From Bidens hawaiensis (Eukaryota; Streptophyta; Magnoliopsida; Asterales; Asteraceae): a stretch of DNA of 64,000 bases. The notes beneath the pieces are model-generated. The model ran no database searches and was not told the origin of the DNA. It worked only from the letters and a program-made list of their open reading frames with translations. Every line of letters starts with the position of its first letter. Positions within the stretch are counted from its first letter, which is position 1. A program made the translations under genes and the position numbers. This document shows positions 12,755 to 60,706 of this stretch, piece after piece. The DNA lies in NCBI GenBank assembly GCA_021521415.1, contig JAIQDT010009094.1:1-64000 (forward strand). Direction: 5' to 3'.

Positions 12755-13042
12755 AGTTGGAGTAACCTCTCTATCCGTTTAGATTGAGGAAAAATTCGCC
12801 CACATCCTACTCAGTACTCTCCCCTTGCCCTACCAATGGCTTGTTATGAGTGGTATTTATTGGGTACGTTTAGTTTTTAGTTCGTTTTTTATTACCTCGA
12901 GCCGGGGTTTCTTCGAAAGCAGTCTCTCTATTCTTACGGGTAGAGGTAAGAATATCTACATCTTACTCCTCTTAGACCCTACCATAGTTTTGCTATTGGT
13001 GGGGTTTATTGAGTACGATGATGATGATGATGATGATGATGT
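12755..13042 (+). mobile_element. Two adjacent Au-type SINE 3' parts with GAT-repeat tail
   Basis: The second copy (about 12895-13042) reads CCTCGAGCCGGGG, then AAGCAGTCTCTCTATTC, AGAGGTAAG, CTACATCTTAC and TTTATTGAGTACGATG, matching the plant Au SINE 3' region as I remember it, and ends in a GAT repeat. A more diverged copy of the same landmarks precedes it (about 12755-12868). A 120-codon frame at 12825-13187 and its antisense arise from the SINE and its tail and are not a gene. Confidence 0.7.
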
Positions 13043-13643: not shown

Positions 13644-14940
13644 TCCTACGATATATTAAAACAATAGAGTTTGGTGCCACATGGCCCCTTCCTATTGGAC
13701 GTTAGCCTCTCCTTCCAAAAATATCTCACTTCTCTAATTTTCTTATCATTAAAATAAATCAAAAACATATTATTTTCCTTATACATTAAATGCATTTAAT
13801 TTAATTAAATACTTTAAATGAATGAATTACAATATTACGATTAATTTTTTTCCTTGGATCCCCTTTCTCTTCATTCTACCATCATCTTCCATCAGTTTAA
13901 CCAGTATATTTCATCAGTTTAACCAGTATCTACAGTTCAATCGTATTATGATAATATCCTTCAGTTTAACCGTCCCTCCGACGAAATCAATTTATCCGTC
14001 CCTCCGACGAATTTTTTATTTCATTTTCTTCAAAATCACGGCTATTAAGACGCTATAATAACGAAATAATCATTGATCTTATCACGGCTATTCAGTAGAT
14101 CCATGGTTATTTTTGATCAGATGTTCGGATACTTTGCCGTCGCGTCATGGTTATTGTTAATCAGATCTAAAAGACATTGTTGTCGTCCCGTCAATTGGAT
14201 TTTATTTTCCGGTAAGTAATTTCATTGTGAAGATCTGAATAATATGTTGTATTTTTTGTAATATTAAGTTTTGATTTTTATTGATTACTATCATTAATAA
14301 GAGCTAACAATTTTTTAAATTCGAAATTTGAATTATTAGTCAACTTAATTTTCAAATTGTGAACTCGTAATCACCTATGAGTTATTACTGTTTATTTATT
14401 CCTTTTAATTAAATCCGTATTTACTTTGTAAATATTTTGGAAAGTTGTTACAAAGAAAATATTAATTCATAGTATATTAAATGAGTTTTACTAAATTCGA
14501 AATTTCTAATTGTTAGTCAACTTATGACAAATTTTGGCAAGTTGTTATGATTTTTATTTGTATTAGAATATTTGTATTAGAATTTATTATTTTATATAAA
14601 TACTTGATTTGTTAATGTAAGTAATTATATCAACTTTTGAAATTCGAAATTTCAATTGTTAGTCAACTTATGACAAATTTTGGCAAGTTGTTATGATTTT
14701 TATTTGTATTAGAATTTTTATTATCAATATATTCAAAAAGTTTACTAAATGTTATTTAGATTTACATTCTACAAATTATTAAAAATTTTGGCAAGTTGTA
14801 CATTCTACAAATAATATCAAATTTTGGCAAGTTGTTAGGATTATTTTTTATAAATCCCTGATTGTATTCTCTTTCAACTAACCATATTTTGAGCTTTCCT
14901 ATTTTTGTTAATAATTCCAAGTTTGTAACAAATACTCCGT
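13644..14940 (+). repeat. Helitron 5' leader with short direct repeats
   Basis: This non-coding leader holds CAGTTTAACCAGTAT repeats near 13.90 kb. From 14492 to 14850 it holds a diverged tandem repeat with a period of about 145 bp, whose core reads TTGTTAGTCAACTTATGAC and then TTTTGGCAAGTTGTTA. Two copies are close (14492-14585 and 14638-14720), and partial ones flank them. The 78-codon frame near 13.8 kb has no domain. Confidence 0.7.
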
Positions 14941-14942
14941 GT

Positions 14943-14951
14943 CTATATATA
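14943..14951 (+). promoter_or_regulatory. Probable TATA box of the RPA70-like gene
   Basis: CTATATATA lies about 190 bp before the ATG at 15132. It is followed by a C/T-rich stretch typical of a plant 5' leader (CACTTTCTTTGTCTTCG). The AAG-GT at about 15028 may start a leader intron ending just before the ATG. This is inference from spacing and composition. Confidence 0.5.
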
Positions 14952-15131
14952 CTGTAACCATAACGAAGACATTCACACAGTTCTCACTTTCTTTGTCTTC
15001 GTTTCATATTTGTTTCATTTTCAAGGTTTTCATTTTCGAATATACATATAAATATTTATTTTCACTCATGTAAATTTTATTTACCGATTTTTTTTATCTT
15101 TGCATTGATTTTGTTTTTGTTACGCAGCAAG

Positions 15132-17929
15132 ATGGAAGCAAAAAACTTTACCATGTTCAACTCTTTGGATGTTTCGAACAACGATTGCTTACTGAAGGTT
15201 CGTATACTTAGACTGTGGCGTTTGAAGGACAACAATAAACCAGGAGAGGACTGGTCCATCGAAATGATCTTACAAGATGAGACGGTATGAGAAATATGCA
15301 TACAATAATTGTTTATATTTTTTTCATTTCTTTCTTATTATATGCATACAATAATGTTTGTCTTATTAATACTGTAACAGGGTCATCGAATGCAGGCGTA
15401 TGTAAGGAAACCTTGCATACCGAAACATGATGTTTGGCTTGCTGAGAATCGCTCATTGATTGTGCGAAAAGCTTCCCTTGGTGCAAATTTTTGTCAACAT
15501 ACCGTGTAGTTGACAGCCCACATAAGCTCTGTTTCACGTTAGAAACTCGACTTTCGATTTGTGATGAGTTTAAAGGTCACATTTATGGATTGTCGTTTGC
15601 TACCTTTGATGATATCAAAGCCAAGAACGAAACTCAGAATGGAACGATAGGTATCCTTTTTTGCATCTTTTAATTAAATTTCGTTTTAAATTCAATACAT
15701 TATATTATGACAGTTAAATACGATCGTTTAATATCTGTTTCATTCCTCATTATAAATTATTTCTCAGATGTAATCGGTCATGTCAGTAAGTTTTTCGACA
15801 ATAAAAACTCATTCTTCCGAGAGGCACAACACCAGAATCGAAGAACCATGGAATTTGCTGATTTGAGGTTTTGTAAATAATTTATATATTATCATGTATA
15901 ATTAAATAATTCATTTTTGTCAACTTCTACTTTTTGATGAACCAGTGGCAAAACGATTTATCTCACCTTATGGGATGACTATCTTAAACAACTTATCAAA
16001 TATGTTTCTGACAACCCGAATGAGGAGTATCTCATTATCGTCCTCCAATTCGCACGAGTCAAGTACTATGGAGGTATCATTATACATTGAGTATTTTATT
16101 TCTAATCCTTAAAATTCTTTATAGTTAATAATTCTAACTTTACATACATTTATATGATTTTGGTAGAAAATGTTTATGTTCAAAACTCTTATGGTAACCA
16201 AGTGTCAAGGTTGATGATCAATGATTACTTGTATGAAGTGATTGATTATAAGAAACGGTAATGTATTATAACTATTTAATTATAATTTTATTTTATTACA
16301 CGTATACATTATTGTTTATTTTAAACACCTTATGACTTATTTTTTTGAAATAATAGGTTGCTTGAAATATCCTCGAAAGTCAATGTCGAAGTACCTAAAC
16401 CGGTTGGTTCATCTAAGCTGCTAACTGTTAAGGATGAATTTTTGAAGAAGTATCCGTTCTATTCAATCAGTGATCTTTGTACCATTTTGGAGGTATGTAA
16501 CCATTTGTGTTTGTAAATACTCATGTTGAGTTAAATTTTACTAATAAGTTCACCATGTTATTATTATAGGCTAAAAACGTCGTCATAATTGGTACCGTTA
16601 AGTATATATTGGGTAACAAGGAATGGTACTATAATGGATGTAAACGTTGTAGTCGTAAGGTTACTTCTACTTTTGTTGATGGAGTGAAGGTTTATGAATG
16701 TAAGAATTCAAGTTGTAATTCTCAAGGTGTAACCGCTGGACCGAGGTACTATTTTATAAATTTAAAATATATAATATTTTTACTTTTTCATTTAATAATA
16801 TTAAATTAAACTGGTGTTTTACAATAATTTTTAAAATAAGTCCCCTTTATTTTACAGATTCCGAATTCCAATTCGTGTACAAGATACGACCGGTGTTGTT
16901 TCTCTTACGTTGTTTGATAGGGATGCGAGACAGTTGTTCAATAAGCCTGCTGATGAATTTGTTACCACTGATGTTGAGGTATGACATTTGTACCATTCTC
17001 CCATACAATATGTTTTTTTGTGTCATTTACACTGATCAGTTCAATCTATTAGTTTTCATATTATTATGTTCTTTTTTTTCATTGTTTTAAAACCAGAATT
17101 TTTTAATATCTTATAAACATAAAATAAAACGCAAACAGCTTTTATCCTATTTAACTTGATTTTCAAATCATTGACTTTTCTTTTTTTACATTTTAGAACT
17201 TCATTAAATGATTTTTTATTATGTTCATTTTCTTAATTGTTATTTTGAAGGTTGATCCGATGCACACGTTTCCTGAAGAACTCAACACTATATTAGAAAA
17301 GAAATTTGCTTTCATTGTTGAGGTTAGTGACTACAACATCAGGAACTCATATGACGTCTACGGTATCACCAAGTTAACCGATGACCAGGACGTTCTTAAT
17401 GATCTTGATAAACAGCTTGCTCATGGTCAGGTATGATTATTGTTTCCGTTTTTAAAAATAATGTTTTAATGTATATTAACAAACTGTGTATTTATTTAAT
17501 TTTAAATATAATTCAATTTAACTTCATGTGCAGCCTAATGACAATCAGTCTTTAACAGTTGGATCATCCTCTAACCTGAAATCAACCGAAAATGTAACAG
17601 TTGGATTATTAATCCGTTTTTTTAATAATCCAAAACTTTATAAATCTAAATGTTTATACTAAAAACATGAATGATAAACTGATTCGTAGGAGTTGTTGAC
17701 ACCTTCGTCCGACCACTTCACTCCTATTTCAAACTCTGAAGACGTAATTCCGGATTGTCTTTCATCTCTTGATGGGAAGGCTATTTCTTTACAAGAGGTT
17801 GACGTAAAACTCAAGCGGAAGTTGGATGATACTTATGATGGTCAGGATGACACCGGTATGTCTGCAACCAAGACGAAGGTTGATGAACAACCAGTTGTTG
17901 ATGCTAATGTTGATGACGTGGATATTTAA
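15132..17929 (+). pseudogene. RPA70-like single-stranded DNA-binding protein (replication factor A1 type), one-base frameshift
   Basis: Eleven exons fit with GT-AG introns: 15132-15284, 15381-15650, 15768-15867, 15946-16073, 16167-16257, 16357-16492, 16570-16745, 16858-16978, 17251-17430, 17534-17593 and 17690-17929. Together they would encode about 551 residues. OB-fold landmarks include STYRVVDSPHKLCFTL and TIYLTLWDDY. A C-terminal RPA zinc finger is visible as C317-x2-C320 and C337-x4-C342, followed by FRIPIRVQDTTGVVSLTLFD. The tail is acidic. RPA1 coats single-stranded DNA in replication and repair. Inside a Helitron it is thought to assist rolling-circle intermediates, which is inference. 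The one defect is in exon 2, where the T run at 15488-15492 is a base short, so the frame shifts and stops soon after. All other exon phases close, so this may be a base-calling error rather than a dead gene. Confidence 0.88.
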
Positions 17930-18914
17930 AATGGACGAAGGCGCAACTTAATAATAAACGCAGCTTATTGCATGCATCGTTTGTCTTTTTTAATGGTTTG
18001 ACTATGGATGTTTTTGGTTTTTATGTTTGTTTATTTGACATTGTGATATGGGTTTTATTTATGTTGGTTGAATTTTATATGGATATCTTTGAACTTATGT
18101 TTTCCTTATGTTGAGTGTTATTTTATAGTAGGATTATCTATTATCTTTTTAAGGTTGTTAAAAAATTATATCAATAAGTTATTTTATTTTCTATATTATT
18201 TATGTTGGTTGAATTAAATAATTCATTTTTGTTAACTTTTACTTTTCGTGTTTTTGTTAAATAAATTATAGTAACAAACTTAAAATCTTCCTTATTTAAC
18301 TAATTAGATCATGAGCAAATATAAACTACTTATTTGTTTCCAGAGTTACATATAATTATATAATAACAATCACTCAAATAAGTAATAAATTCATGAATAA
18401 ATTTAGAATGTTAGATTTTTATTAATGTTGACATATAATTAGTTAACAGTTGACCATATTGATCAATAAATGTATAGATTTAAACAATCTTCTTAAATTT
18501 GAAAATATAATGTATCTATTAAAAGTTTAAAGGAATTAGTTACTTATTACCATAAATCATCAACTATATTTAACAGTCGTCCATTAATTACAATTTTAGA
18601 GTTTATGAGGAAACCCATTAATAATTATAAACAAGCACATATAACTAAAAACACGGTTATTTTTTGATTTATATATTTTTAGAACGTATTAACATTAATA
18701 TTACGACAGATTTAGTCATTATTTGGTTTGATAACAAATCAAGTTTATTCTTAACAAAAGAAATTAACTACCCACAATTATTTTTCAAATATAAATATAC
18801 TATTCTAAAAATAAGGATACAATATAAATTTCTAATGGATTTTTAAATATTTACTTCCAAGTAAATATTCTGGAAGCTTACTATAATAATAATATTAACA
18901 TCTAAATATAATAA

Positions 18915-18949
<35 letters not shown>

Positions 18950-19539
18950 CTTCATTAATATCACACAGCCAAAAACCGATCGTCTTCTTCTTCTTCGAAC
19001 TTCCAAACACTAAACAGGTAATTAACTCTTCCAAATCATGGAGATCCTTTTTTAATAATGTTTTACAATTGTTATCGTTTCCTCTTCTTTAATAATATCA
19101 ACATTATTTCTGTTTTAATTTATTTATAAATTAAGGTAATTTTTCAACCGGTTTGTGTTAATCCAAAAACATTAAATTTCATTTAATAGTTAGTTAGTTT
19201 TCTGTTTCCATGATATAATCTTCTTTGCTTAAGCTAACCCATAAAAATTAATTGTCATTAATCAATGTGTGTGAAACATCAGTACATATTATAATTTAAA
19301 CGATTACATACCTGTTTCCCGGTAAAGTAGAGCTGTAATAACACTTTCTAGACACATTGTTCGTAACTAGGTGTTTTTGAGTTATTTAGTGTGTTAATAA
19401 AAGAAAACCACTAACATACCTTAGAACACGCCTCGTGATTTGATTTTTGTTAACATATGTATTTGTCATATTTGTATTTGAAGTTGCTCTATATGTTATA
19501 ACAATTTGTACTAAATGTTAGTATCTTCAAATAGTGATA
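17930..19539 (+). promoter_or_regulatory. Spacer between RPA-like and B3 genes, with TA microsatellite and probable B3 promoter
   Basis: AT-rich DNA follows the RPA stop. An (AT)n tract at about 18917-18946 lies just before a C/T-rich leader (CGTCTTCTTCTTCTTCG), and a possible leader donor follows at AACAG-GTAATT (about 19018). This suggests that the B3 gene was captured with its own promoter and leader intron. No other gene is seen. Short AT-rich frames here are not credible. Confidence 0.4.
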
Positions 19540-21004
19540 ATGGTGTTACCCGCAGTTATTGTGTTTTACGATCCTTCGAAACCGCAGATGGTATGTATTA
19601 CTAATTATAAATACATTTGGTTATTTATTAACAACAATTTTTTAGGCATATACGATTTTTATGAATTAACGATTGTTTACCATTTAGGTTATTCCTGCTG
19701 AGATATGTGAACACTTACTTCAACTTGAACCCGATGAACGTTTTATTAATTTGTTTCACAATAATGACAATGGGCAGTTTATAAATATTGACTTCATCAA
19801 CAATGAATATGTTTTAGCGTTTGGATGGAATCAGTTTGTTCAGAGAAATCGATTTGATTTTGGAGATCATTTTGTTTTCGAACCTCTTAACGACCTTGAA
19901 TGGCGTTTCTTTTGCATCCCTGATCACCCGACTTTTGATTTAAAGAATTTGGAGGCTGCTGTCAAATTTCCTACTCTAAGTTATCTGGTATAACATTCAT
20001 TTTAAATCATCAATTATCTTACATTAAAATATAATAATAATTTTATTATGTCATGTTTGTTCATAGTAACAAATTATATATACTGATTTACACTTTCTAC
20101 TAGCCATTGCGGACTGATCAGGTTTTCCGGTTCTTTCATAACCCTGCCCATGAAGTAATCGTGCATGTTCTTACTGTTGATGGAGCTTCATGGGATTTAC
20201 CGATATTTAATCTGAACAACGGTGCATCAACTTTTGGTCTTGGCGCTGCTTGGATCGAAGTTGCTAAACACGTGAATCTTATGCAAAATGACCATATTGT
20301 TCTAAGACATCTTAATGATAACACATTCAGATGTTATGTTTTTGACATAAAAGTCATTGAACGTATCAACTTTGATCCACTTCTTGTCTATTACGGTCCA
20401 CCCCTGAGTGATCAAATTGATTTTATGGACATACTTTTTGGAGACGACGAACCTGAAGGTTTGAATTCAACTTATTTTTTTGTTTTTTGACACTATGCAT
20501 GTATTCAACATAATATAATAATCCTATGTACATTAGTTTTTCCAGCACCTGATGAACCAGTTCAAGTTGTAGATGACGATGTTGAAGACATGGATCAAGA
20601 TGAATTGGATGATGAACAAAACAACTTTCTCGAAGTCGTGGTTTCTAATAGATTGGTAAGTGATATTACCGTGTAAAATATTTAATTATTTAAACATTGG
20701 TTTTGCTTCTGGATGGTTATTAATATGGTGATTGATAATTTTTCAATATGTTAATTTTTAGTGTTTGCCCGCTGACTTTGCGCGTGACAATGACTTGGAT
20801 GTTGAAACACCGTTGATGCTAATCAATACCGAGGGCATAGACGTTCCTACAGAGATACGCTTGGAGTTAAATCAGGGGACATATAGGTCGCGTGTCCATG
20901 ATTGGCAACTGTTTATTGACCTCAATGGTATTGAGAATGGAGATGTGTGTGTTTTCGAGTACCACCGAAACACTCATTCACTTATTCTTTTGGAAATCAA
21001 CTGA
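19540..21004 (+). CDS. Triple B3-domain DNA-binding protein (REM-like), Helitron cargo, intact
   Basis: Five exons (19540-19590, 19688-19987, 20104-20458, 20546-20655 and 20762-21004) join without any stop or shift into about 352 residues. Three B3-like units are visible. The first (about residues 18-100) has VIPAEICEHL, GQFINIDF and AFGWNQFVQRNRFDFGDHFVFE. The second (about 118-220) has WDLPIFNL, GAAWIEVAKHVNLMQNDHIV and an end near CYVFDI. After an acidic linker (VDDDVEDMDQDELDDE), the third (about 273-352) has CLPADFARDN, WQLFIDLNGIENGDVCVFEY and a hydrophobic end. B3 domains bind DNA in the major groove, and multi-B3 proteins without other domains belong to the plant REM group. I infer a nuclear DNA-binding role. 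The start is the first ATG after the leader that keeps phase. The gene sits between RPA-like and Rep/helicase in the same orientation, so it moves with the Helitron. Confidence 0.85.
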
Positions 21005-22348
21005 TTCCTGTAAGCCAAATCCGTATCATTTTGTCTCCGTGGGTGTTATTTAGTTTTCTTTGTTTTCTTTTGCGTATGTCGACACTTTTGGTTATGGTTT
21101 TCGATGTTTTCGTAATGACTCGGTTGAAGACTATTTAAAATGTTTAGATAATATCGTATGCTGAAGTTTGTATGTTTTATCTTTTTGATGATTGCAACAT
21201 CTAATTTTTGTCATTTTGTTTACCTTACGTTAATATTCGTTTATAATTATAATTATTAAAACATATAAACTGACATAGTATTATGTAACACTAACGTATG
21301 TAATTAACTTATTCAATTTTTTTAAAAACTATTAATTAATATATATATACATATGTTAAGTAAATCAAATATGTATACTAACCTTCTTGCTTTTTGTCTA
21401 AATTTGTTATTAATGGAATTGATATACTTTGCTTTACACATCTTAATGATCACACATTAGGCTATATGTTTTTTGACATAAAACGCATTCAACGTATCAA
21501 GTTTGATCCAGTTCTTGTCTATTAATTAATAATTTTAACCAAATTTAATCTTTCCATTTTTACATTAAATAGTTAGTTATCGTTTAGTCCCTTATAATAG
21601 GAATAAATTCATCAATATATGTAAATTGTTATTAACTTTTTTATGTTCATATCTAATTACTTAAAATTGTACCAAACGGAATCAATAAATGAAATTTGAT
21701 TAAAGTTTTTCATTCAAATGTTATACAAAGATTATGGTAATTAGATTTTTGTTATTTATTATCAAATATTTTGTGCTGAATAAATGTAATTATTAACAAC
21801 ATTCTCGGTCCTTCATTTTAATTGGTAATAAAGATATTTGAAATATGGCATGTATAATTATTTTTTCAAATCAATTACACAATCATGGTGATTGTTTCAA
21901 AAAAGACAAGTTAATTAACGCCAAATTATAAACAAAAACACTTTTCAAAATTTTTTCAATTAATTTTTACTTATATAGAAATAACATAATTTATTCCAAC
22001 CATATATACTTTGTCTTCACTTAAAATAAGGTTACCATAAACAGTCACACCTTTACCTGAAGCCTATATATTGAATAGGTTAGCTTATAAAACATGTCAC
22101 TTTAAAATTGTCACTACTAATACCTGCTCGGTTATTAACTCTGGCATTCATTCATTCGGAAGTTTTGATAGCATTTTAAGTTGAGTATTATTATAAGTTT
22201 GAAGGTATGTAAGATTTACTTTTGGAGAATACGCTATTTTACATAATCGCAATTCTTATAATTACAGCCTATGTAATTATTGTTCTCTACATCATATTAG
22301 ATTTATAAATTTCACATGTTAATCATATTTTTTTAATTTTATATTTAG
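21005..22348 (+). other. Spacer between B3 and Rep/helicase genes
   Basis: AT-rich and non-coding apart from the duplicated B3 exon fragment at 21437-21524. TATATATACATATGTTAAGTAA near 21.34 kb resembles sequences near 24.51 and 24.60 kb inside a Rep/helicase intron, so older internal duplications exist. Confidence 0.5.
21437..21524 (+). repeat. Decayed duplicate of part of B3 exon 3
   Basis: The piece from ACATCTTAATGAT through TTGACATAAAACG to TTCTTGTCTATTA matches about 20307-20393 in exon 3 of the B3 gene with scattered differences. It has no exon signals. It shows that the B3 region was once partly duplicated within the Helitron. Confidence 0.8.
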
Positions 22349-25300
22349 ATGTCTTCAAGATCAAAGAGACCCACAGATTCTCAATCATCCTCTTCCAATA
22401 AGGGGAATAATACAAATGGTTAGTGACTTTCACAATTTAAGGTTACTATGTAAATACTATGTTATAATAATATTAATTTTGTTTCAAATACATGCAGTGT
22501 CATCGTCTAGACAACCATTGAGTATCATATCAAACGGTAATAATTTTTTTAGAACTCATCAATTGATTTTAATTTTTTATATTTGATGACCGTCTTTTTT
22601 TATTAGACCTTATATTTTATATGACATACGGCAACTAAAATTTTTGCTATTCGTCATGTATTTAAGTATATTTTACAACGTAACTTACTTCGTTATTAAA
22701 ACTAATTTAAAGTATCATATTTTACTTAAAAGATACATATATAAAATGATTTTATTAATTTTTACCTATTGAAGATCAATTTTATATGTTTTTATTATAA
22801 AAACGAAATATAAATTATATTTTTACATATATCTACCGCCATTTTTTACATAACACAGGAGTATTAATTGATACCTTCTTTACGTCAAACTAATATAGAT
22901 CTCCAAAATCATTTTTTACGTTCTACAATTTAAAAATCAAAAAGGAATCAATATTCATTTGCGTTTTTAATATTTATGTTTAATATTCTGTTTTTTATAT
23001 AAATTACAAAGAAAATCAAAACTAATTACAATAGCGTATTACTTAACCGAGCTTTAACGTATTTCAGCAAATATAACAAAACTTTTGTGTACAGACTAAT
23101 TTGTCTTTCTTAGTACTTATGGTTTATTATATTCTATTTATTATGTTATTCTAACGACAAAACCAATTTAGCGTCTCATCCATTGACATCATCTAATGTT
23201 ACGCGATTCTACAATGGACAAGAAAAACACCCTCCAACAACTAACGAAGGTTATATCTCCACAAGCTCCAGTAACACAGGTACATTATAGACTTTTATTT
23301 TCTTTTTCGATATATTCAAAATATATGTATTCACTACATATATTTCTTATATCCGTGCTTTTAATTAACCAAATTTTAATTTTAAATATAATAGTTGTCA
23401 CGATGAATACCAAAGAATCTATTGCTAAGGATAAGCGAAGACATAAAAAGATGGTTCTTGAAGGAAGGAGAAGTAAAATATTAAACAACAATATAAACAA
23501 CACATCAACCGGTAAACTTTGGTTTTAATAATTTTGTTATAAACCACTAAATTAAATTGATCATGATGATTACTTGTATTTATAGTTAATTGTGGTAGTA
23601 GACTGAATACAATCATTCAATCAACTAATTCCAGTACTTCAACAATGGGCCAACAACATCAGACATCACGTCCTTTATTATCAATTAACGGTACCGGTGA
23701 AACTTCCATAGGTTAGTTAATATGTATTTTTTTTATTATTATGTTTTTGTTATTTCTTTTATCTATATTAATTTTTTCTTTATTATTTTTATTAACTGAC
23801 ATTGTAATTATTAATAATTATGTAGTTTCACCAACAAACACATTAAAAGATTGCTTAATGGAAAACCAAATAAATCAGAGATTGTTTTTAAACCGAAGAC
23901 TCAACATTATTAGTCCTCAAACTACAAATCCACAACAACAGTTGTTATCACCAGGTAAACCAAGTACAAATTATGTTTTTTTAACACATGTTATTTATGA
24001 ATTTAAATATTTATATATGATGTTGTAGTTTCTTTGTATATTAACAACCAATTTTATATTTTAGGTGTGAATGTGACATCTACTTATCGTTTGACACCAC
24101 TGTCTAATATTACCAACCACCATTTTACTTCTTCATCTAATATATTAAGGCCTGGATGTTCTTCCTCATCTACAATGTTGTTTGGTCAATCCTCATCAAC
24201 GCATCGTGCGTCTCGCAGAAGCTTTAATGTTGATCATCCCATACCCATGCCAAACTTAGATCAATTTGATACGCTTAACGGTGAAAATGAGTCTATCAAT
24301 CCTTGCAAATCGATATCTTCAGGTACGTGAATTCAATTACATTTGGTTTTGTTAGCTACTATATTTATAATTTAACTTTTGTAACATATTTCATTGAATT
24401 TATAATTTAACTGGAGATCATATTTCATTGAATTATATGTATTCGTGTTGTACTTTTTTGGATTCATTCTGTTATTCCCTACTGTTTAAAGTTAATGTTT
24501 TTGGAAACTATTCATATATATATATACATATGTTAAATAAGACATAGTGTTATTTAACAAGAACCAATCAAAATAACGTTTTCAATTTTGTGGTAAACTA
24601 TTAATATATATACATATGTGAAGTAAAGAAAACATATGATATGAATAGTTTATTGGTTACTGTATAATTTTTTTATTAATGTAATTTATATACTTTGCTT
24701 TAGACTTTTATACATTATTAATAAATAATTTCAGCCATTATTAACTTTTTCATTTATATATTAAATAATTTCAACCATGTATGTGTAACTATTGATTTCT
24801 TAGGAAGGTATTTTTTTATAAGTGATGGTTTAACTAACAAAATATCTCCAACTGCGTTATTCATAGTTAATATATATATATAATTCATCAAAGTTGTTTT
24901 TTATTCACGTCATATTCTATTTTCAACAGATTATTTAGATCATGGAGATCAAAATGTCATGTGTGGAGTTTGCAAAGCATTATTATGGGATTTAGAGACC
25001 AACAAAGGAAAAACAAACAACGGTGTCACAAGTTACTCACTCTGTTGTAGTACCGGTGATGTGCAACTTCCGGACATCAAGCCTCCACCAATGAGTTATA
25101 TGAATTTGTTCCTTGGTCATGATAGTACCAGCAAGTATTTTCTTCAAAACATTAGACGGTATAATTACATGTTTTCTTTTACGTCTCTTGGTGGGAAGAT
25201 TGATAATTCTATTAATCGAGGAAACGCTCCATATACTTTTAGACTTGGTGGAGAGAATTATCATTCGTTGGGAAGTCTTCTTCCAATGCCTGACGCCAAA

Positions 25301-28300
25301 CCACGGTTCTCTCAACTATACATTTACGATACTGAAAATGAAATATCAAATAGACGAGACATATTTCGGTACGTCACTTAACTCTTTTAATTGTTTTAAT
25401 TATTACATTCATATTTGTATAAAAACTGATATTTTTTTAATTAGACGTAATTTGATTTTTTGCCCTGTCCATGTTTTTATGTAGGGAAACAGATTCAACT
25501 GATAAATTGTTGGACAACCAAATTATTTGCTTCCTCAAGGACATGTTGGATTCTCATAATCCGTTGGTTAAAAGTTATCGGATTGCAAGGGATTGTTTTC
25601 AACAAAACCCAAATTTGGATTTAAAGTTGAGAATAATTGGAACACGCAAAGGAGACGCAAGGACGTACAACCTCCCAACAACTTCTAAAGTTGCAGCATT
25701 GATCGTTGGTGATATTGGTGATGCAGTTGATAAAAGAGATATTATTGTCACAACTCAAAGTGGATCTTTGAAACGTATTAGTGAATTGCATCCGTCATAT
25801 GTTCCTCTTAAGTATCCTATTTTTTTCCTATATGGTGACGATGGTTATAGTATTGACATACTGCATCGTAATGTTCGAGGTTCGACAAAAAAAAACGCAA
25901 GAAGTGCACTATGCGTGAATTTTGGGCGTACAGATTTCAAGATAGGCCAGACAGCTACCCGCTAACTTTAAATGGCGGAAGACTGACTCAGCAGCTGTTT
26001 GTAGATTCGTACACGATGATAGAGACTCAAAGGTTGCATTATGTACGCACACAACAAAAAAATCTTAGGTCTGAAACTTATGAAAACCTAAGAAATCTAC
26101 ATTCGGCTGGAACATCTGACGTGTCCTCTGCTGGCCAACGTATTATTTTACCTTCTTCATTTACCGGAGGTGCTCGGTATATGATGCAAAATTACCTTGA
26201 TGCAATGACTATATGTAGATGGTTTGGTTATCCCGATTTCTTTATAACCATAACATGCAACCCGAATTGGCCGGAAATCAAACGATTTTTACGAAATAAA
26301 AATCGAAAGTCCGAAGACAGGCCCGATATATTATGTCGGGTATTTAAAATGAAGCTTGATTCATTGATGAAAGATCTAAAGGATAAAGCTTTGTTGGGGA
26401 AGCTTCAAGCTGGTATGTTTTATTTTTGTAGTTCATAATAACATTGGTTTTTTAAGATATTGTTGATTATAATTATCAAAATTAAGCTATCAAAACAATT
26501 AATTTTAACATATGTTATCTTTTTTTTAAATAAGTTATCTAATTCACAACTACTTATATCATGCAGGTGTGTACACAATTGAATTTCAGAAACGTGGATT
26601 ACCCCATGCACACATTTGCCTTTTTTGCATTCTGAGCACAAAATTCATAATCCGGAGTGTATAGACAACTTTATCTCTGCAGAAATTCCAGATAAGAATG
26701 AAGATCCGGAGTTGTATTCGCTTGTAAGCGACCACATGATGCATGGTCCATGTGGTGTTACTCACCCTCAATGCACTTGCATGGTGGATAACGAATGCTC
26801 AAAAAATTTCCCAAAGAAACTTCAAAACGAAACGTCCATTGATTCTAATGGCTTTCCTGTTTATCGAAGAAGAGACTTGGGTAATGTTGTTGTTAAGTCT
26901 GGGGTAAATTTAGACAACAGACATGTTGTTCCTTATAACAAGAAACTGTTAAAAAAATATCAAGCCCATATCAACGTTGAATGGTGTAATCAAGAGGGTT
27001 CGATAAAGTATTTATTTAAGTACATTAATAAAGGTCTCGATCGTGCAACTATATCCCTTGTACAAAACAATGCTGCTAATCAAGATGAAAATGTAGACGA
27101 AGTTAAGGCATTTTATGATTGCAGATTTCTGTCTACATGTGAGGCGGCATGGAGAATATTTGCTTTTGATGTGCATTATAGATTTCCTTCAGTTACTCGA
27201 CATCCGTTTCATTTACCCGGTCAACAGACAGTTGTGTTTGCAGATGATGATGATGTTGAAGACGTTTTAAACAAACCCACTGTTGGTTTGTCAAGATTCA
27301 CTGGTTGGATGGAGTGTAACCAGAAATATGATCTTGCACAAACCCTAACTTACGCAGAGTTTCCAACAAAATTTGTTTGGAAACAAGACGCAAGGGTTTG
27401 GGAGCTTCGTAAACGTGGTTTTTCCATCGGTCGAATTCATCATGTTCCACCCGCCTTTAATGAAGCATACTTTTTAAGAATTTTGTTAAATAAGGTTAAA
27501 GGTCCTAAATGCTTTGAAGATATTCGTAAGGTTGATGGTGAAGTGTGTGCTACGTATAGAGATGCATGTTATAAAAGAGGGCTTCTAGATGATGACAACG
27601 AGTATATAGAAGCTATTGAAGAAGCAAGTCATACTGCAAGTGGTTACTACTTACGCAGTTTATTTGCAACAATGTTAATCACATATAGTTTATCTCGGGC
27701 GGACGATGTTTGGGAAAAGAGTTGGAAGTTTTTAATTGATGGCATTCTATATAAACAACAAATAGAGCAGAAAAATAAAGGTATCAAATGTTTTTCTTTT
27801 ATTTTTTATAGATTTATCACAAATATGTTTATAAAAAACCTAATTGTTTAACAATTTTTTTATTGCCTACAGATTTGGTACTTTCAGAAGCCCAACTAAA
27901 GAACCTCGCTCTACTTGAAATTCAAAACTTCCTGTTGCGAAACAATTGTAGTTTACGTTGTTTTCCCACCATGCCTTTCCCTGATGATGATTCAATTTCC
28001 GCATCAACAAATCGTTTTATGAACGAAGAACTTGCGTACGATACACATCATATGACAGGTGAGTTTGAACGACTTTATAGTTCGTTAACAGATGAGCAAT
28101 GCAGTGTGTTTAACGAGATAATGGAAGTAGTAGATGCAAAAAATGGTGGTGTTTTCTTTGTTTATGGATATGGAGGCACGGGAAAAACATTTTTATGGAA
28201 GACTTTATCTGCTTCCAAACGATCGAAATCAAAATTCGTTTTAAGTGTGGCTTCAAGCGGTATAGCATCTTTGTTACTTAAAGGAGGTAGAACCGCTCAC

Positions 28301-29533
28301 TCTAGATTTCTAATTCCTATAAATCTAACTAAGGATTCTACCTGTTCAATAACAAAAAATCCAGATGTTTGCAACTTAATTAAGCAAACTGATCTGATTA
28401 TCTGGGACGAGGCTCCTATGATACATAAGCATGCATTTGAAGCTTTGGATAGGAGTCTCAAAGATGTTTTAAAAGGTGTTAACCGTGATAGTACTCGAAA
28501 GCCATTTGGGGGGGAAGTTGTTGTTTTTAGGGATGACTTTCGTCAAATACTACCCGTAATACAAAATGGATCACGTAGTGATATTGTTAATGCGTCACTT
28601 TGTTCGTCCCATTTGTGGTCCAATTGTAAAGTTCTGAAGTTAACCAAAAACATGAGGTTAACTGTCGGGTGTAACCCATCCGATTTTGAAGAGGCCTCCC
28701 AGTTCGCAAATTGGTTGTTGGAAGTTGGTGAAGGTACACTTGGTGGTGACAATGATGGTAATTCAGTTATAGAAATACCAAATGATCTTTTGATCGGTGA
28801 TTCTGCTGATCCACTTTCAGAACTTATTGATTTTGTTTATCCTGCATTATTGGATAATTTTAATGATATTTCTTATTTCCAAGAAAGGGCCATACTTGCA
28901 CCCTTAAACGAGGTTGTCCAAGATATTAATGACAGATTTTTAACTTTCTTTCCGGGAGAAGAAGTTGAATATCTAAGTTCGGATAGTATTGACAACTCTG
29001 AAACTGTCGGGCCTGGTTTCGATCAAGCATTGCACTCACCGGACTTTCTAAATGGTTTGAAGCTTTCTGGTATGCCTAATCATAAATTGGTTGTAAAAGT
29101 TGATGTCCCAGTAATGTTGCTAAGAAATATTGATCAGAAAAACGGTTTATGCAACGGAACAAGATTACAGATTATTCAATGCGGTAGGCATTTTATTGAA
29201 GTAAAGGTCATTTCGGGTACAAACATTGGTCATCGCACTTACTTAACTCGAAGTACACTAACTCCTACAGATAAAAAATTGCCAATCAAGTTGAAAAGAA
29301 GACAGTTTCCTATAGCGGTTTGTTTTGCAATGACAATTAACAAAAGTCAAGGCCAATCCCTAGCAAGAGTTGGAATATATCTTCGACATCCGGTGTTTAC
29401 ACATGGTCAGTTATATGTGGCTTTATCCAGAGTGAAGAGTAGAGCCGGAGTTAAAATGCTTATTTTAGACAAGGAGGGTAAAGTTACAAATCAAACTTCA
29501 AATGTGGTTTATAAGGAACTTTTTAATATATGA
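22349..29533 (+). pseudogene. Helitron Rep/helicase (HUH endonuclease plus PIF1-like helicase), two one-base frameshifts
   Basis: Eleven exons fit: 22349-22418, 22498-22536, 23172-23279, 23395-23511, 23586-23711, 23826-23954, 24065-24322, 24930-25368, 25485-26412, 26567-27780 and 27873-29533 (about 1,696 residues). The N-terminus is Ser/Asn/Thr-rich with a basic patch (KDKRRHKK). Exon 8 opens with a CxxC zinc motif. The Rep domain has the HUH motif HAH at 26605-26613 and the tyrosine pair in YLFKYINKG from 27009. The helicase has Walker A GYGGTGKT (28166-28189), Walker B DEAP (28406-28417) and the C-terminal TINKSQGQSL and YVALSRVKS motifs. Rep nicks and joins single strands and the helicase unwinds, so together they drive rolling-circle transposition. 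Two defects appear: the A run at 25887-25895 and the T run at 26621-26626 are each one base short. All other phases close. Helicase motif III reads RDDFRQ where GGDFRQ is usual. Confidence 0.92.
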
Positions 29534-29694
29534 AGTTTTTATTTTTTATCCATGGAGTGATTGTAAAGATCGTTTTATTTTTCTTGGAAAGTTATTAACA
29601 ATTGTATATTCTATTATCGTGGCAATATGTATGTATGATTTTTGTTTTTGACTTTAAAATTATCGTTTTATGTTACAAGATTTAATTATTTCAA

Positions 29695-29723
29695 CCCGTG
29701 GCGCCCACGGGTCAATAACCTAG
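29695..29723 (+). terminator. Helitron 3' hairpin and CTAG terminus
   Basis: CCCGTGG (29695-29701) pairs perfectly with CCACGGG (29705-29711) across a CGC loop. Eight bases follow, then CTAG at 29720-29723 and host T at 29724. This hairpin-CTRR arrangement is the rolling-circle transposition stop signal of Helitrons. Confidence 0.92.
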
Positions 29724-42585: not shown

Positions 42586-44214
<1,629 letters not shown>

Positions 44215-46200: not shown

Positions 46201-46984
46201 TCTAACTATCTATATAATTGCCTACCATAAAACCCTACGTGTCACTCTTCAGTTGCTCCCCCCATTCTCTAGAGCCACTAAATTGCATGATTTCTAAATG
46301 GAGACTTCTCATGCATTTGACCCGAATTAGCGGGTATGGGTCTTACCAAACCCGGATAGTCTTTAAATGAGTTATAACATCTCATTTATTTGTGAAACTC
46401 TTTCAAAATCAAACAATAATTTTTGCGGGTCATGGGTCTCACCAAACCCGGATAACCCTTAAATGGGTTATAACATCTCATTTATTTGTGAAATAACCCC
46501 TTAATCATCAAAGAATAATTTTCACGAGTTATAGGTCTTACCAAACCCTAATAGCCCATAAATGGGTTATAAGATCTCATTTATTGTTAAACATTTTCAT
46601 CGTTAAACCCTAATTTAATTTATCTCTTTTACATGTTCTCTGTTGTCTATCATCTCCTTCGCCGGTTAACTTTCGATACTATCCAACATCGTCAACTACA
46701 TTAACGTCCCCTTATTCATTAAACAAATATTTGTGTTCATGTTTGTTCATTTAAAAAAATCAACATGCCCGTGTTCGTTTATGTTTGTTCGTTAAAAAAC
46801 TAAAAAACATACACATCTCAATTGGAAAAACCCAAACGCTAAAAAATATAATAAGAAACTAATATATATATGTATTAAATTAAAAAAAACTACGTTAAAA
46901 AATAAAATAAATCATCATAAAATAGCAAAATGATTAAAAATAAAAACTTGAATAAACTCCCGTAACACTGGAGAATAAAACTAG
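46201..46984 (+). mobile_element. 784-bp non-autonomous Helitron inserted in the Copia 5' LTR
   Basis: It starts TCTAACTATCTATATAATTG at 46201 after LTR base A, and ends CTCCCGTAACACTGGAG, AATAAAA and CTAG (46981-46984) before LTR base T. The 3' LTR has the uninterrupted site, so both ends are proven to the base. Inside, a block of about 100 bp (TCTTACCAAACCCGGATAG to ATCTCATTTATT) is repeated three times between about 46330 and 46605. No coding capacity. Confidence 0.95.
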
Positions 46985-47393
46985 TAATAATATATATTTA
47001 TATATGGCCATTATAATCATTTATATTATAATAGATTAAAATATTAAATATACCTTATTATATATTAGTTTGGTAATTGTTGATGGGCCATGTAACCTAT
47101 AGTTAAATAATAAAGGGTTTCCCCTTGGGTGTATATATAGAGAGATAAATATTAACATAACCTAATCACACATGCATAACAATTTTGTGTGCTTCATCTC
47201 TCATAAAACCGGGTTCCTCTCAAGAACCCTAACATCATCCTTAACTATACATCCTAAAGGGGAACTCGACCAAGATGACAAACATGTCAACTATCTCATA
47301 CTCTGTTGCGATTACTATTCTCCATGTTGTAACAGGTTCATAAGTTTAATATTTATCATGTTTTATATTACTTACATGAAGAACTGATCAACA

Positions 47394-52628: not shown

Positions 52629-53079
52629 TGTAAGAATAATATATAATAATATATATTTATATATGGCCATTATAATCATTTATATTATAATAGATTAAAA
52701 TATTAAATATACTTTATTATATATTAGTTTAGTAATTGTTGATGGGCCATATTACCTTTAATTAACTAATAAAGGGTTTCCCTTTGGGTGTATATATAGA
52801 GAGATAAATATTAACATCATAACCTAATCACACACACATAACAATTTTGTGTGCCTCATCTCTCATAAAACCGGGTTTCTCTCAAGAACCCTAACACCAT
52901 CCTTAACTATACATCCTAAAGGGGAACTCGACCAAGATGACAAACATGACGACTATCTCATACTCTGCTGCGATTACTATTCTCCATGTTGTAACAGGTT
53001 CATAGGTTTAATATTTATCATGTTTTATATTACTTACATGAAGAACTGGTCAACAAAATTAGTTTAGTAAAAAGGAACT

Positions 53080-53694: not shown

Positions 53695-53815
53695 AAGCAG
53701 CCTCTCTATCCCTATGGGGTAGAGGTAAGGTTGTCTACATCTTACATTTCTCAGACCCTACCATAGTTTTGCTATTGGTGGGATATACTGAGTACGATGA
53801 TGATGATTATAATTT
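53695..53815 (+). mobile_element. Au-type SINE, 5'-truncated
   Basis: GAAGCAGCCTCTCTATCC, GGGGTAGAGGTAAGG, GTCTACATCTTAC and CAGACCCTACCATAG, ending in GAGTACGATGATGATGATT, closely match the copy at 12895-13042. Both share the unusual GAT tail. Confidence 0.7.
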
Positions 53816-58831: not shown

Positions 58832-60706
58832 GGCTGAGGGGTGCGGAGCGCTAGTCAGGGCGCGTGAGGGACTTCGATAGCGCCCCGGGGCGCGAGAGCC
58901 ACACCACCGGGGCGCGAGAGGGGCGCGAGAGGGGCGCGAGAGCGGAAAACGAGGCAGGCGCCAGGAGGCTCGCGCGCGTGAGTGGCTGTGGGAAATGGGA
59001 AAGAGCCGTTGGAAGGCTTTAATAATGAATAAAAATATTTTTTTTTTTTTAACAAAATCATCTATATATATCACAATACATATATCACAATACATATCAA
59101 ACACAACCATTCTCACATACTACAACCAAAACGAATATCACACACCACACCCAAAACCCAAAATCACCCTATCTTCGAAACCTTTTTTTAAAAACATGTC
59201 TGGAAATTGGTACCCAAACCTAGATTCAGATTACCCTTACGACGATTTATGGTCGGCACCGGAACAACCGATGTTTTATTCGGGGTCGCAACAATCATCC
59301 GGCTTTCAACCATCCAACATGCAACCGTCTCCTAACTTTGTAGTTCCGGAGACACAAGAACCGGAACCAGAAGGTGAAGCTGCGGGACAAAGAAGACGCG
59401 TCCACCGGAAAAAACAACTTGCAACGGACGGGTCGGGTTCGGCTTCGACCGGAAGGGCGAAACGGAAAATCACTCCGTGGTCATCGGATGAGAAGGAAGC
59501 CCTGTGTCGGGCTTGGATAGCCATTTCTGAGGATCGGCGTTGCGGTAATTGTTTTAACGTTTTTAAAAATGATTGTAAATAAAAAGTTAAATAAAAAAGT
59601 TAAATGGCTTACAAATTTATTTACATAATTTTGCAGCCGACTACCAAAAGAGCAAGGTCTTTTGGACAAAGGTTAGGGAGACGTTCTATTCGCTCGTTGG
59701 GAGTACAGAGCGGAATCCCGATATGATTTCGGGTCGGTGGACCGAAATTAGAAAATTTGTCGGCTTGTTTACTAATCTGTTCAACAGGAACGCCGGTCGT
59801 ATGAGACCAAGTGGCAGTGACGATTTGGCGGTCTATAATTTCACTGTCGAAGAGTGGAAGCAGGAGTGCCTGCGGAGGTATGGGGCGGTGAAGACGTGGG
59901 ACGGTGTAAAGTTGTGGGAGAGGTTGAGAAGGTGTGCCAAGTGGGTTGAGCTGGTGGCGCCGGACCTTGATGCGGAAGTAGGGCCGAAACGGACTAAAAC
60001 TAGTTCGTCTGGAGCGTACAGCACAACGGACGGGTCGGATTGCCGGGTTGGATTCGACCTAAACGTTGCGGGGGAGGAAACGTCTTCACCGCCGAGGAGG
60101 CGGCCATTGGGAAGGGACGCCAGGGGGAAAAAACCGGCTGAGGGGGAAGCCGTAAACATCAACGATCTTGTTGAATCCCTCAATAAATTCAACAAAACCC
60201 TGGAGGTGGTCTCTGTTGACAAAAAGGAAAAAAAAAGAATGAGAGATTTGGACTTCCTTGCAAGAGACTTCAGCCACCTAAATCCGGTCGACCAAATGCT
60301 GATGGAAAAACAAAAGGAACGTATCCGGAAGAGGTTGATCGAAGAAGACGAAGCCGAAGAATAAGAATAATGTTAATGTGTTTTTTTAATTTTTTTTAAT
60401 TAATGTGTTTTTTTAATTTTTTAGTACTTTAATTTTTTTTATATATTAATGTGTTTTTTTAATTAATGTGTGTTTGTTTAAATAATTACTTGTTTTTTTA
60501 ATAATACGTTTTTTTAATACATTTATAAAAAAATAAAAAAATAAACCGCTCGCGCCCCCTCTCGCGCCCCTCCACACCATGCCCCGGGGCGCTATCACCA
60601 CTACCAATACCCATCTTATCAAGTTTCTCTCTCTGCCACACGTCACAATATTATTGGATGGCGCCCCCACTCACGCCCCCTCTCGCGCCCCCCACACCCC
60701 TCAGCC
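58832..60706 (+). mobile_element. PIF/Harbinger-type element carrying only the Myb-like ORF1
   Basis: The ends are GGCTGAGGGGTG (58832-58843) and its exact reverse complement (60695-60706). TTA flanks both sides (58829-58831 and 60707-60709), the target duplication typical of PIF/Harbinger. Both subterminal zones are strikingly GC-rich with repeated GGGGCGCGAGAG in opposite senses. The 1,875-bp element contains one spliced gene and no DDE transposase, so it is non-autonomous for cleavage but may supply the DNA-binding partner. Confidence 0.9.
59196..60364 (+). CDS. Harbinger ORF1-like Myb/SANT (trihelix-like) and NAM-associated domain protein
   Basis: Two exons (59196-59544 and 59637-60364) join in phase into 358 residues with no defects. 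The N-terminal third is polar (Q/P/S-rich, YDDLWSAPEQP), followed by a basic stretch (GQRRRVHRKK). A Myb/SANT-like helical domain spans about residues 88-190 and crosses the intron: TPWSSDEKEALCRAWIAIS, then VFWTKVRETFY, GRWTEIRKFVGLF and WDGVKLWERLRRC. The C-terminal NAM-associated region includes INDLVESLNKFNK and a charged helix to the end. In PIF/Harbinger systems such a protein binds the element and recruits the transposase into the nucleus. The chosen ATG begins MSGNWYPN; the frame is open further upstream, but that part is low-complexity leader. Genome annotations often give such genes misleading names, including glutathione S-transferase T3-like. Confidence 0.9.

What the first reader, a model, noticed from the sequence alone, without database searches (positions are those of the whole stretch)
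13644..29723. A 16-kb Helitron that carries its own RPA-like and triple-B3 DNA-binding genes
Both Helitron termini are recognisable, and three co-oriented spliced genes lie between them. Rep/helicase and RPA-like genes are known in plant Helitrons. A complete triple-B3 (REM-like) gene with intact frame and apparent own promoter is not standard cargo as far as I know. A transposon-borne DNA-binding protein could bind the element ends, silence competitors, or rewire host expression. It may also be a simple gene capture.
Basis: partly seen in the sequence, partly recalled or inferred. Interest (0 to 1): 0.9.

Follow-up and report, generated by a model that had tools for sequence, protein, structure and literature searches.

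The report
Helitron carrying a resident B3 gene
A family of plant jumping genes (Helitrons) carries, besides its two known genes, a third gene for a DNA-binding protein of a type usually made by the plant, and this gene seems to have travelled with the element under selection for a long time, which suggests that the element uses it.

Summary
The window lies in the Bidens hawaiensis genome (contig C9094). The element is 13644-29723. Nine other insertions share both ends; all 10 are preceded by A, 9 of 10 followed by T. Gene order: RPA-like, triple-B3, Rep/helicase. Of 12 near-identical copies found by the 3' end, 7 hold full-length B3 in the DNA read, 2 more have it 21-32 kb upstream, 3 lost it by deletion. 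Of 18 near-identical RPA copies, 10 have full B3 downstream on the same strand. A diverged copy, C6125, keeps the order RPA-B3-Rep. B3 dN/dS against the window is 0.44-0.53 in four diverged genes. For C6125, B3 dS (0.39) is near Rep dS (0.42, 0.53), as shared descent predicts. So B3 is most likely an old, selected, resident gene. Its function is inferred: a trans-acting regulator of the element, perhaps countering silencing. This copy looks dead: RPA and Rep are frameshifted, B3 is open. My literature searches found no report of B3-bearing Helitrons.

The parts
13644..29723 (+). Helitron, 16,080 bp, inserted between A and T
   Evidence: nine other insertions share both ends; flanks unrelated where compared
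13644..13693 (+). 5' terminus, begins TC
   Evidence: TC start in 10 of 10 both-ended copies
14305..14852 (+). non-coding repeat block upstream of RPA; contains four copies of TTTTGGCAAGTTG (14532, 14678, 14786, 14822), none elsewhere in the window; candidate binding array, picked because it is repeated
   Evidence: repeat numbers differ between copies
15132..17929 (+). RPA-like gene, 11 exons, introns GT-AG; one frameshift in exon 2, not seen in the nine other copies holding the gene
19540..21004 (+). triple-B3 gene, 352 aa; exons 19540-19590, 19688-19987, 20104-20458, 20546-20655, 20762-21004
   Evidence: copies; selection
21438..21524 (+). decayed fragment of B3 domain 2 (paralogue of 20307-20393)
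   Evidence: 84-86% identity; 10 of 10 changed codons among 28 change the amino acid
21272..21439 (+). spacer segment similar to 24541-24705 in a Rep intron (75%)
   Evidence: 110 bits against at most 35.6 in 60 shuffles
18381..18472 (+). segment upstream of B3 similar to 21599-21691 downstream of B3 (73%)
   Evidence: 52.7 bits against at most 34.6 in 60 shuffles
22349..24323 (+). small 5' exons of Rep, by eye
   Evidence: sequence reading only
24932..29532 (+). Rep/Pif1-helicase gene, main exons 24932-25370, 25484-26412, 26567-27781, 27872-29532; HUH motif 26593-26613, YLFKYINKG 27009-27035, Walker A 28166-28189 (motif names recalled); two frameshifts in this copy
   Evidence: exon borders by eye
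29694..29723 (+). 3' hairpin (8-bp stem, 3-nt loop), 7-nt spacer and CTAG

Best explanation
This is a recently amplified plant Helitron family whose full form has three genes: RPA-like ssDNA binding, a triple-B3 DNA-binding protein, and Rep/helicase. B3 is a resident gene kept by selection on the element, not a chance capture. SHOWN: exact ends; B3 together with RPA and Rep in several insertions; the same gene order in one diverged copy; dN/dS well below 1 for B3 between the window and diverged copies; similar dS for B3 and Rep in that diverged copy. INFERRED: that the selection acted while B3 was in the element; that the B3 protein acts in trans as a sequence-specific binder of the element's own non-coding DNA (the repeat block upstream of RPA is the best candidate) and raises the element's expression or transposition, for example by activating its promoters or keeping host silencing off. 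B3-less deletion derivatives would then be mobilised by full copies.
For: Both ends shared by 10 insertions. Of 12 near-identical copies found by the 3' end (40 of 3330 candidates scored), 7 hold full-length B3 in the DNA read (in C1808 split by an insertion) and 2 more have B3 and RPA upstream on the same contig and strand. All 10 near-identical full B3 genes found (40 of 78 candidates scored) lie downstream of an RPA on the same strand; one, C9083, is the window's own insertion on another contig. C6125 has RPA exons, B3 and Rep in order on one strand. C2149 has RPA, part of B3 (92%) and a 3' part in order. dN/dS of B3 against the window is 0.53, 0.48, 0.47 and 0.44, upper bootstrap limits 0.74, 0.67, 0.70, 0.63; intron K 0.41-0.50 against dN 0.17-0.21. 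All 8 intron-border dinucleotides are kept in 4 of 4 diverged genes, and C6125 has no exon indel and no stop. B3 dS 0.39 against Rep 0.42 (213 codons) and 0.53 (83 codons) for window versus C6125. RPA+B3 gene models in sunflower and Bidens.
Against: B3 is not needed in cis: 8 of 18 near-identical RPA copies showed no full B3 nearby, and C1673 and C2368 share one deletion junction at different sites, so a B3-less form has moved. After insertion B3 shows no clear constraint (34 N, 17 S, omega 0.52, near-star tree). Between the four diverged genes omega is 0.43-0.75 and in 2 of 6 pairs the upper limit exceeds 1; domain 2 alone gives 0.69 and 0.91. Three of the four diverged genes have frameshifts or stops. 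B3 evolves faster than Rep (0.48 against 0.19 and 0.11). Only one diverged copy was shown to have all three genes; the slices read beside C7436 and C4427 showed no RPA. Nothing here shows DNA binding, expression or function.
Confidence: 0.7

Rival explanations
1. Passive cargo: a host REM-like B3 gene was captured once by an ancestor and then merely copied along.
For: Helitrons often capture genes (PMC13317346, passages); many copies lack B3; after insertion B3 decays.
Against: dN/dS 0.44-0.53 and kept splice borders at dS 0.32-0.47; the duplicated fragment at 21438-21524 changed only at amino-acid-changing codons while the main gene stayed open; all 10 near-identical B3 genes found lie next to an RPA.
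Confidence: 0.1
2. Two or more independent captures from one host B3 family, so that dN/dS reflects host selection.
For: Sunflower models have B3 before RPA rather than after it (P0052, P0053), and the surroundings of most 72-79% B3 hits were not read.
Against: C6125 has the same order and orientation RPA-B3-Rep, and its B3 dS is close to its Rep dS.
Confidence: 0.1
3. B3 is a transposition factor that marks the element's ends or origin for Rep rather than a regulator.
For: One to five copies of a 13-base motif in the 5' region of the 10 both-ended copies recall an iteron-like array.
Against: In the window the motif lies only 0.9-1.2 kb inside the 5' end, none at the 3' end. C4629 keeps the RPA and Rep regions without most of B3.
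Confidence: 0.1

Closest known systems
Plant Helitrons with RPA and RepHel (for example the Mothra sister family of rice, PMC4683698; abstract and passages)
   Same: Rolling-circle RepHel gene, RPA-like gene, tandem repeats, deletion derivatives; the TC...CTAG ends are recalled
   Different: 'B3 domain' and 'transcription factor' occur 0 times in that paper
VANDAL transposons with VANC (PMC10398659, introduction)
   Same: an element-borne DNA-binding protein; non-coding tandem repeats with short motifs in the element
   Different: VANC is not a B3 protein (recalled) and VANDALs are Mutator-like; anti-silencing is shown there and only conjectured here
Arabidopsis REM proteins VDD, VAL, REM12, REM13 (PMC12270911, abstract, outline and discussion)
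   Same: B3-type DNA-binding proteins (that REMs have B3 domains, often several, is recalled)
   Different: host genes that recruit Pol IV to guide DNA methylation; no phylogeny was made here
Fungal Helitrons with TET/JBP dioxygenase (PMC12730594, abstract start and passages)
   Same: Helitron carrying an extra gene proposed to help escape silencing
   Different: an enzyme, in fungi

Membership tests
Helitron | HUH/two-tyrosine Rep joined to a Pif1-type helicase | tested here: met
   Helitron_like_N 2.3e-44, PIF1 4.5e-87, Helraiser 7lcc, motifs found; frameshifted in this copy
Helitron | 5' TC, 3' hairpin and CTRR, insertion between A and T, no target duplication | tested here: met
   A before in 10 of 10, T after in 9 of 10; no empty site was compared
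Helitron | multiple independent insertions | tested here: met
   flanks of 0.2-1.5 kb unrelated between the copies, apart from one weak repeat match
Plant Helitron RPA (PHRPA) group | RPA-like protein in a plant Helitron, in the PHRPA clade | tested here: inconclusive
   RPA domains met and in a Helitron; no tree was made
B3 superfamily | B3 domain | tested here: met
   Pfam PF02362, 75 bits against cut-off 30.1, three stretches
REM subfamily of B3 | phylogenetic placement with REM proteins | not tested
   REM likeness is recalled from domain number and style only
VANC-like anti-silencing factor | expression removes methylation from own family by binding short repeats | not testable with these tools
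   only a candidate repeat array was seen

The most novel reading that the evidence does not exclude
Asteraceae Helitrons turned a host REM-type B3 gene into their own sequence-specific anti-silencing factor: it binds repeats in the element's 5' non-coding region and diverts or blocks the REM-guided Pol IV/RdDM silencing of the host, a Helitron counterpart of VANC made from the host's own targeting protein.
Probability: 0.2. Interest if true: 0.92.

Novelty: new variant of a known kind. Interest (0 to 1): 0.74.

Why it matters
Plant Helitrons are known with Rep/helicase and often RPA; a third gene, apparently kept under selection and encoding a sequence-specific type of DNA-binding protein, could give them a way to recognise their own copies. 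Since REM proteins guide Pol IV to chosen sites in Arabidopsis (PMC12270911), a Helitron-borne relative makes a direct test possible of whether transposons turn the host's silencing guides to their own use. It would also mean that some genes annotated as B3 transcription factors in composite-family genomes may belong to transposons.

Tried and rejected
B3 protein searches gave one relative only, P0001 of B. hawaiensis (1 of 2096 candidates; the domain 3 search gave the same one at E 0.88, 18 candidates); that search needs exact shared words. The RPA+B3 models came from the RPA search. Viral-contig scans with B3 and helicase found no relative. The structure model of P0001 without an alignment was poor (mean pLDDT 36) and was not used. 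The idea that the frameshifts were homopolymer sequencing errors was dropped for RPA, where this copy differs by two bases from the nine other copies holding the gene; for Rep, one lesion is absent from 9 of 10 and the other from 10 of 10 other covered copies, and I cannot exclude an assembly error there. The hope that the 82-90% copies would give full diverged elements failed: C47 and C1834, read through, are deletion derivatives without B3; the slices of C318, C5549, C853 and C38 held nothing alike. Ka/Ks within the young copies was uninformative because the tree is star-like. Literature: combine Helitron with B3 or DNA-binding terms. One search found 3 papers (2 listed), one; each listed one holds the Helitron term and 'B3 domain' once, and I did not read them. 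One search found none. In one search, 20 of 80 papers were listed, all with 0 occurrences of Helitron. Subscription papers and preprints are not held.

Full report
WHERE IT IS. The only protein match to the B3 gene is from Bidens hawaiensis. The own-genome tool gives the window as C9094:1-64000 of an assembly of 3,474,515,312 bases in 15,902 contigs, which fits the published B. hawaiensis HiFi assembly of 3,475,153,191 bases in 15,904 contigs (PMC9113482, passages). P0003, an RPA of B. hawaiensis, is reported on a contig of 93,690 bases, the length of C9094, and P0001 on one of 678,492, the length of C1168.

THE ELEMENT. The 3' end has an 8-bp hairpin, 7 bases and CTAG. It is the only site of this kind in 64 kb, and folds at -9 kcal/mol against a shuffled mean of -3.3. 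A search of the genome with the last 724 bases returned 40 matches, 40 of 3330 candidates being scored; 12 match over the whole length at 97-100%, the window included, and two more (C7101, C4539) over part of it at 98-99%. I fetched the 11 others of the 12. Nine have both ends, at window 13644 and 29723 (C1623 differs at the last base); two looked cut at the 5' side in the DNA fetched. The flanks compared, 0.2-1.5 kb, are unrelated apart from one weak repeat match between C1808 and C212.

THE GENES. The RPA-like gene has 11 exons with GT-AG introns and matches DUF223, REPA_OB_2 and Rep_fac-A_C. The B3 gene has 5 exons and 352 codons without a stop, and three B3 stretches. Rep has Helitron_like_N, Pif1 helicase and the HUH, YLFKYINKG and Walker A motifs (names recalled). 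The Helitron protein Helraiser is its best solved relative. In this copy RPA has one frameshift and Rep two. The RPA lesion is absent from the nine other copies that hold the gene; the Rep lesions are absent from 9 of 10 and 10 of 10 covered copies. So this copy is probably dead as a source of Rep and RPA although its B3 is open. Other copies have lesions of their own, for example B3 stops, RPA indels and Rep indels.

DOES B3 TRAVEL? A search with the B3 gene scored 40 of 78 candidates. Ten places hold it at full length at 98-100%. One of these, C9083, shows the window's left flank sequence by eye (the position-by-position count there was spoiled by a shift), so it is the same insertion on another contig. 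Seven of the 12 near-identical copies hold full-length B3 in the DNA I read: the window, C14378, C1808 (split by a 7.1-kb insertion in exon 1), C1623, C677, C5610 and the second C1168 copy. Two more, the first C1168 copy and C212, the ones that had seemed cut, have B3 and RPA about 21 and 32 kb upstream on the same contig and strand; I take them as elements split by later insertions (inference). Three lack B3 through internal deletions: C1673 and C2368 from about 19.1 to 23.97 kb, C4629 from 19.09 to 20.86 kb. The RPA search scored 40 of 748 candidates and gave 18 near-identical RPA copies, C9083 and two split ones included; 10 have full B3 downstream on the same strand, 8 have no full B3 listed nearby (C25, C20, C4539, C4629, C1673, C2368, C7101, C1497). 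Of these 8 only C4629, C1673 and C2368 were read. C1673 and C2368 share one complex junction at different sites, so a form without B3 has moved. B3 is thus common, linked, and dispensable in cis. All search counts are lower bounds because candidate lists were capped.

HOW OLD IS THE ASSOCIATION? The young copies differ from the window by 0.9-1.4%, and 50 of 51 B3 changes are in one copy only (7 copies), which means a recent burst. Omega within the burst is 0.52 for B3, 0.89 for RPA, 0.96 and 1.10 for two Rep parts: mostly drift after insertion. Of 7 full B3 copies examined, 4 have no premature stop, 3 have one private stop each, and none has an exon indel apart from the C1808 insertion. The older history is in the diverged B3 genes at 72-79% identity. 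I fetched four, C734, C6125, C4427 and C7436. All keep the eight intron-border dinucleotides. C6125 has no exon indel and no stop; C7436 has one 6-bp indel and two stops; C734 has two 1-base insertions and three stops; C4427 has three 1-base deletions and one 3-base insertion but no stop in the aligned codons (the first 7 bases of C734 and C4427 were not fetched). Against the window dN/dS is 0.44-0.53 with upper bootstrap limits of 0.63-0.74, and intron divergence is 2.2 to 2.5 times dN. Among the four diverged genes omega is 0.43-0.75, and in 2 of 6 pairs the upper limit exceeds 1, which fits decay of single copies. By B3 domain, window against C6125 gives 0.37, 0.69 and 0.50, against C734 0.36, 0.91 and 0.43. 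In C6125 RPA exons lie upstream (73-74%, with a local inverted duplication) and a Rep part lies downstream (86% over 1 kb), all on one strand. B3 dS is 0.39 and Rep dS 0.42 and 0.53, with Rep omega 0.19 and 0.11. Similar dS and the same order are best read as one shared descent. C2149 shows RPA, part of B3 at 92% and a 3' part in order. C734 and C38 have B3 sequence 1.5-2 kb upstream of a Helitron 3' part on the same strand. The slices read beside C7436 and C4427 held no RPA, and the surroundings of C423, C1956, C3201, C867, C7279, C17 and the second C212 hit were not read.

OLD TRACES IN THE WINDOW. A fragment of B3 domain 2 (21438-21524) lies downstream of B3, inside a spacer whose neighbouring parts recur in a Rep intron; it is present in other copies too. 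All its ten changed codons, of 28, change the amino acid, unlike the gene itself.

OTHER SPECIES. The RPA search gave 67 proteins. Eight have parts of this element's Rep in the gene model (P0005, P0014, P0019, P0040, P0050, P0063, P0065, P0066). Three have B3-like stretches: P0053 (sunflower; BLASTP E 8e-4, Pfam 0.088), P0032 (Bidens; BLASTP E 2e-4, Pfam 0.021), and P0052 (sunflower, named B3 family by its source; Pfam E 3.4e-4, not found by BLASTP with the window's B3). All three Pfam scores are below the curated cut-off. Of the 67, 19 were scanned with Pfam, all with BLASTP. 100 shuffles of B3 gave no value below 0.011. In the sunflower models B3 is before RPA, in P0032 after it. Two Lactuca virosa models (P0050, P0063) run from RPA to Rep with no B3 match. 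Gene models can join neighbours by mistake, so this is a lead that B3-RPA linkage is wider, not proof.

WHAT IT MAY DO. The 5' non-coding part holds repeats (among them 22-, 36-, 146- and 188-bp units) whose number differs between the 8 copies looked at, with 1-5 copies of TTTTGGCAAGTTG in the 10 both-ended copies and none elsewhere in the window. The motif was chosen because it is repeated, and part of its repetition comes from a tandem duplication, so its number is no evidence of binding. Three fetched slices of other subfamilies (C47, C1834, C2557; B3 is deleted in the first two) lack GGCAAGTT. VANDAL elements pair a DNA-binding anti-silencing protein with motif repeats in their non-coding DNA (PMC10398659, introduction), and REM proteins recruit Pol IV in Arabidopsis (PMC12270911, abstract and discussion). 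From these parallels I infer that B3 is a trans-acting regulator of the element; anti-silencing by imitation of the host's guides is the boldest form. None of this has been tested.

NOVELTY. RPA in plant Helitrons is known (PMC4683698). My searches for Helitron with B3 showed no report, within a library that lacks most subscription papers and preprints, and with the few papers holding both words not read. I rate it a new variant of a known kind.

Noticed in passing
C1673 (162287-173485) and C2368 (99942-111211): Two insertions share one complex internal deletion junction that removes B3 and the 5' part of Rep: a mobile derivative of the family.
   Followed up: partly
window 42910-43296, - strand: A 2OG-Fe(II) oxygenase stretch (Pfam 5e-20), by sight like ACC oxidase; the Helitron may sit near genes.
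   Followed up: partly
window 46972-47393 and 52633-53055: 94% direct repeat of about 425 bp, 5.7 kb apart, perhaps LTRs.
   Followed up: no
window 58881-60364: Two adjoining open frames that by sight look like a transposon-related or NAM-like protein; no Pfam match at 0.01.
   Followed up: partly
window 12917-13034 and 53695-53813: 86% repeat of 119 bp left of the Helitron and far to its right.
   Followed up: no
C6125:172600-174100 (L050): Local inverted duplication of an RPA exon region in the diverged element.
   Followed up: no
P0032: A Bidens gene model joining RPA, a B3-like stretch and part of an AMP-binding enzyme, possibly a Helitron next to or inside a host gene.
   Followed up: no
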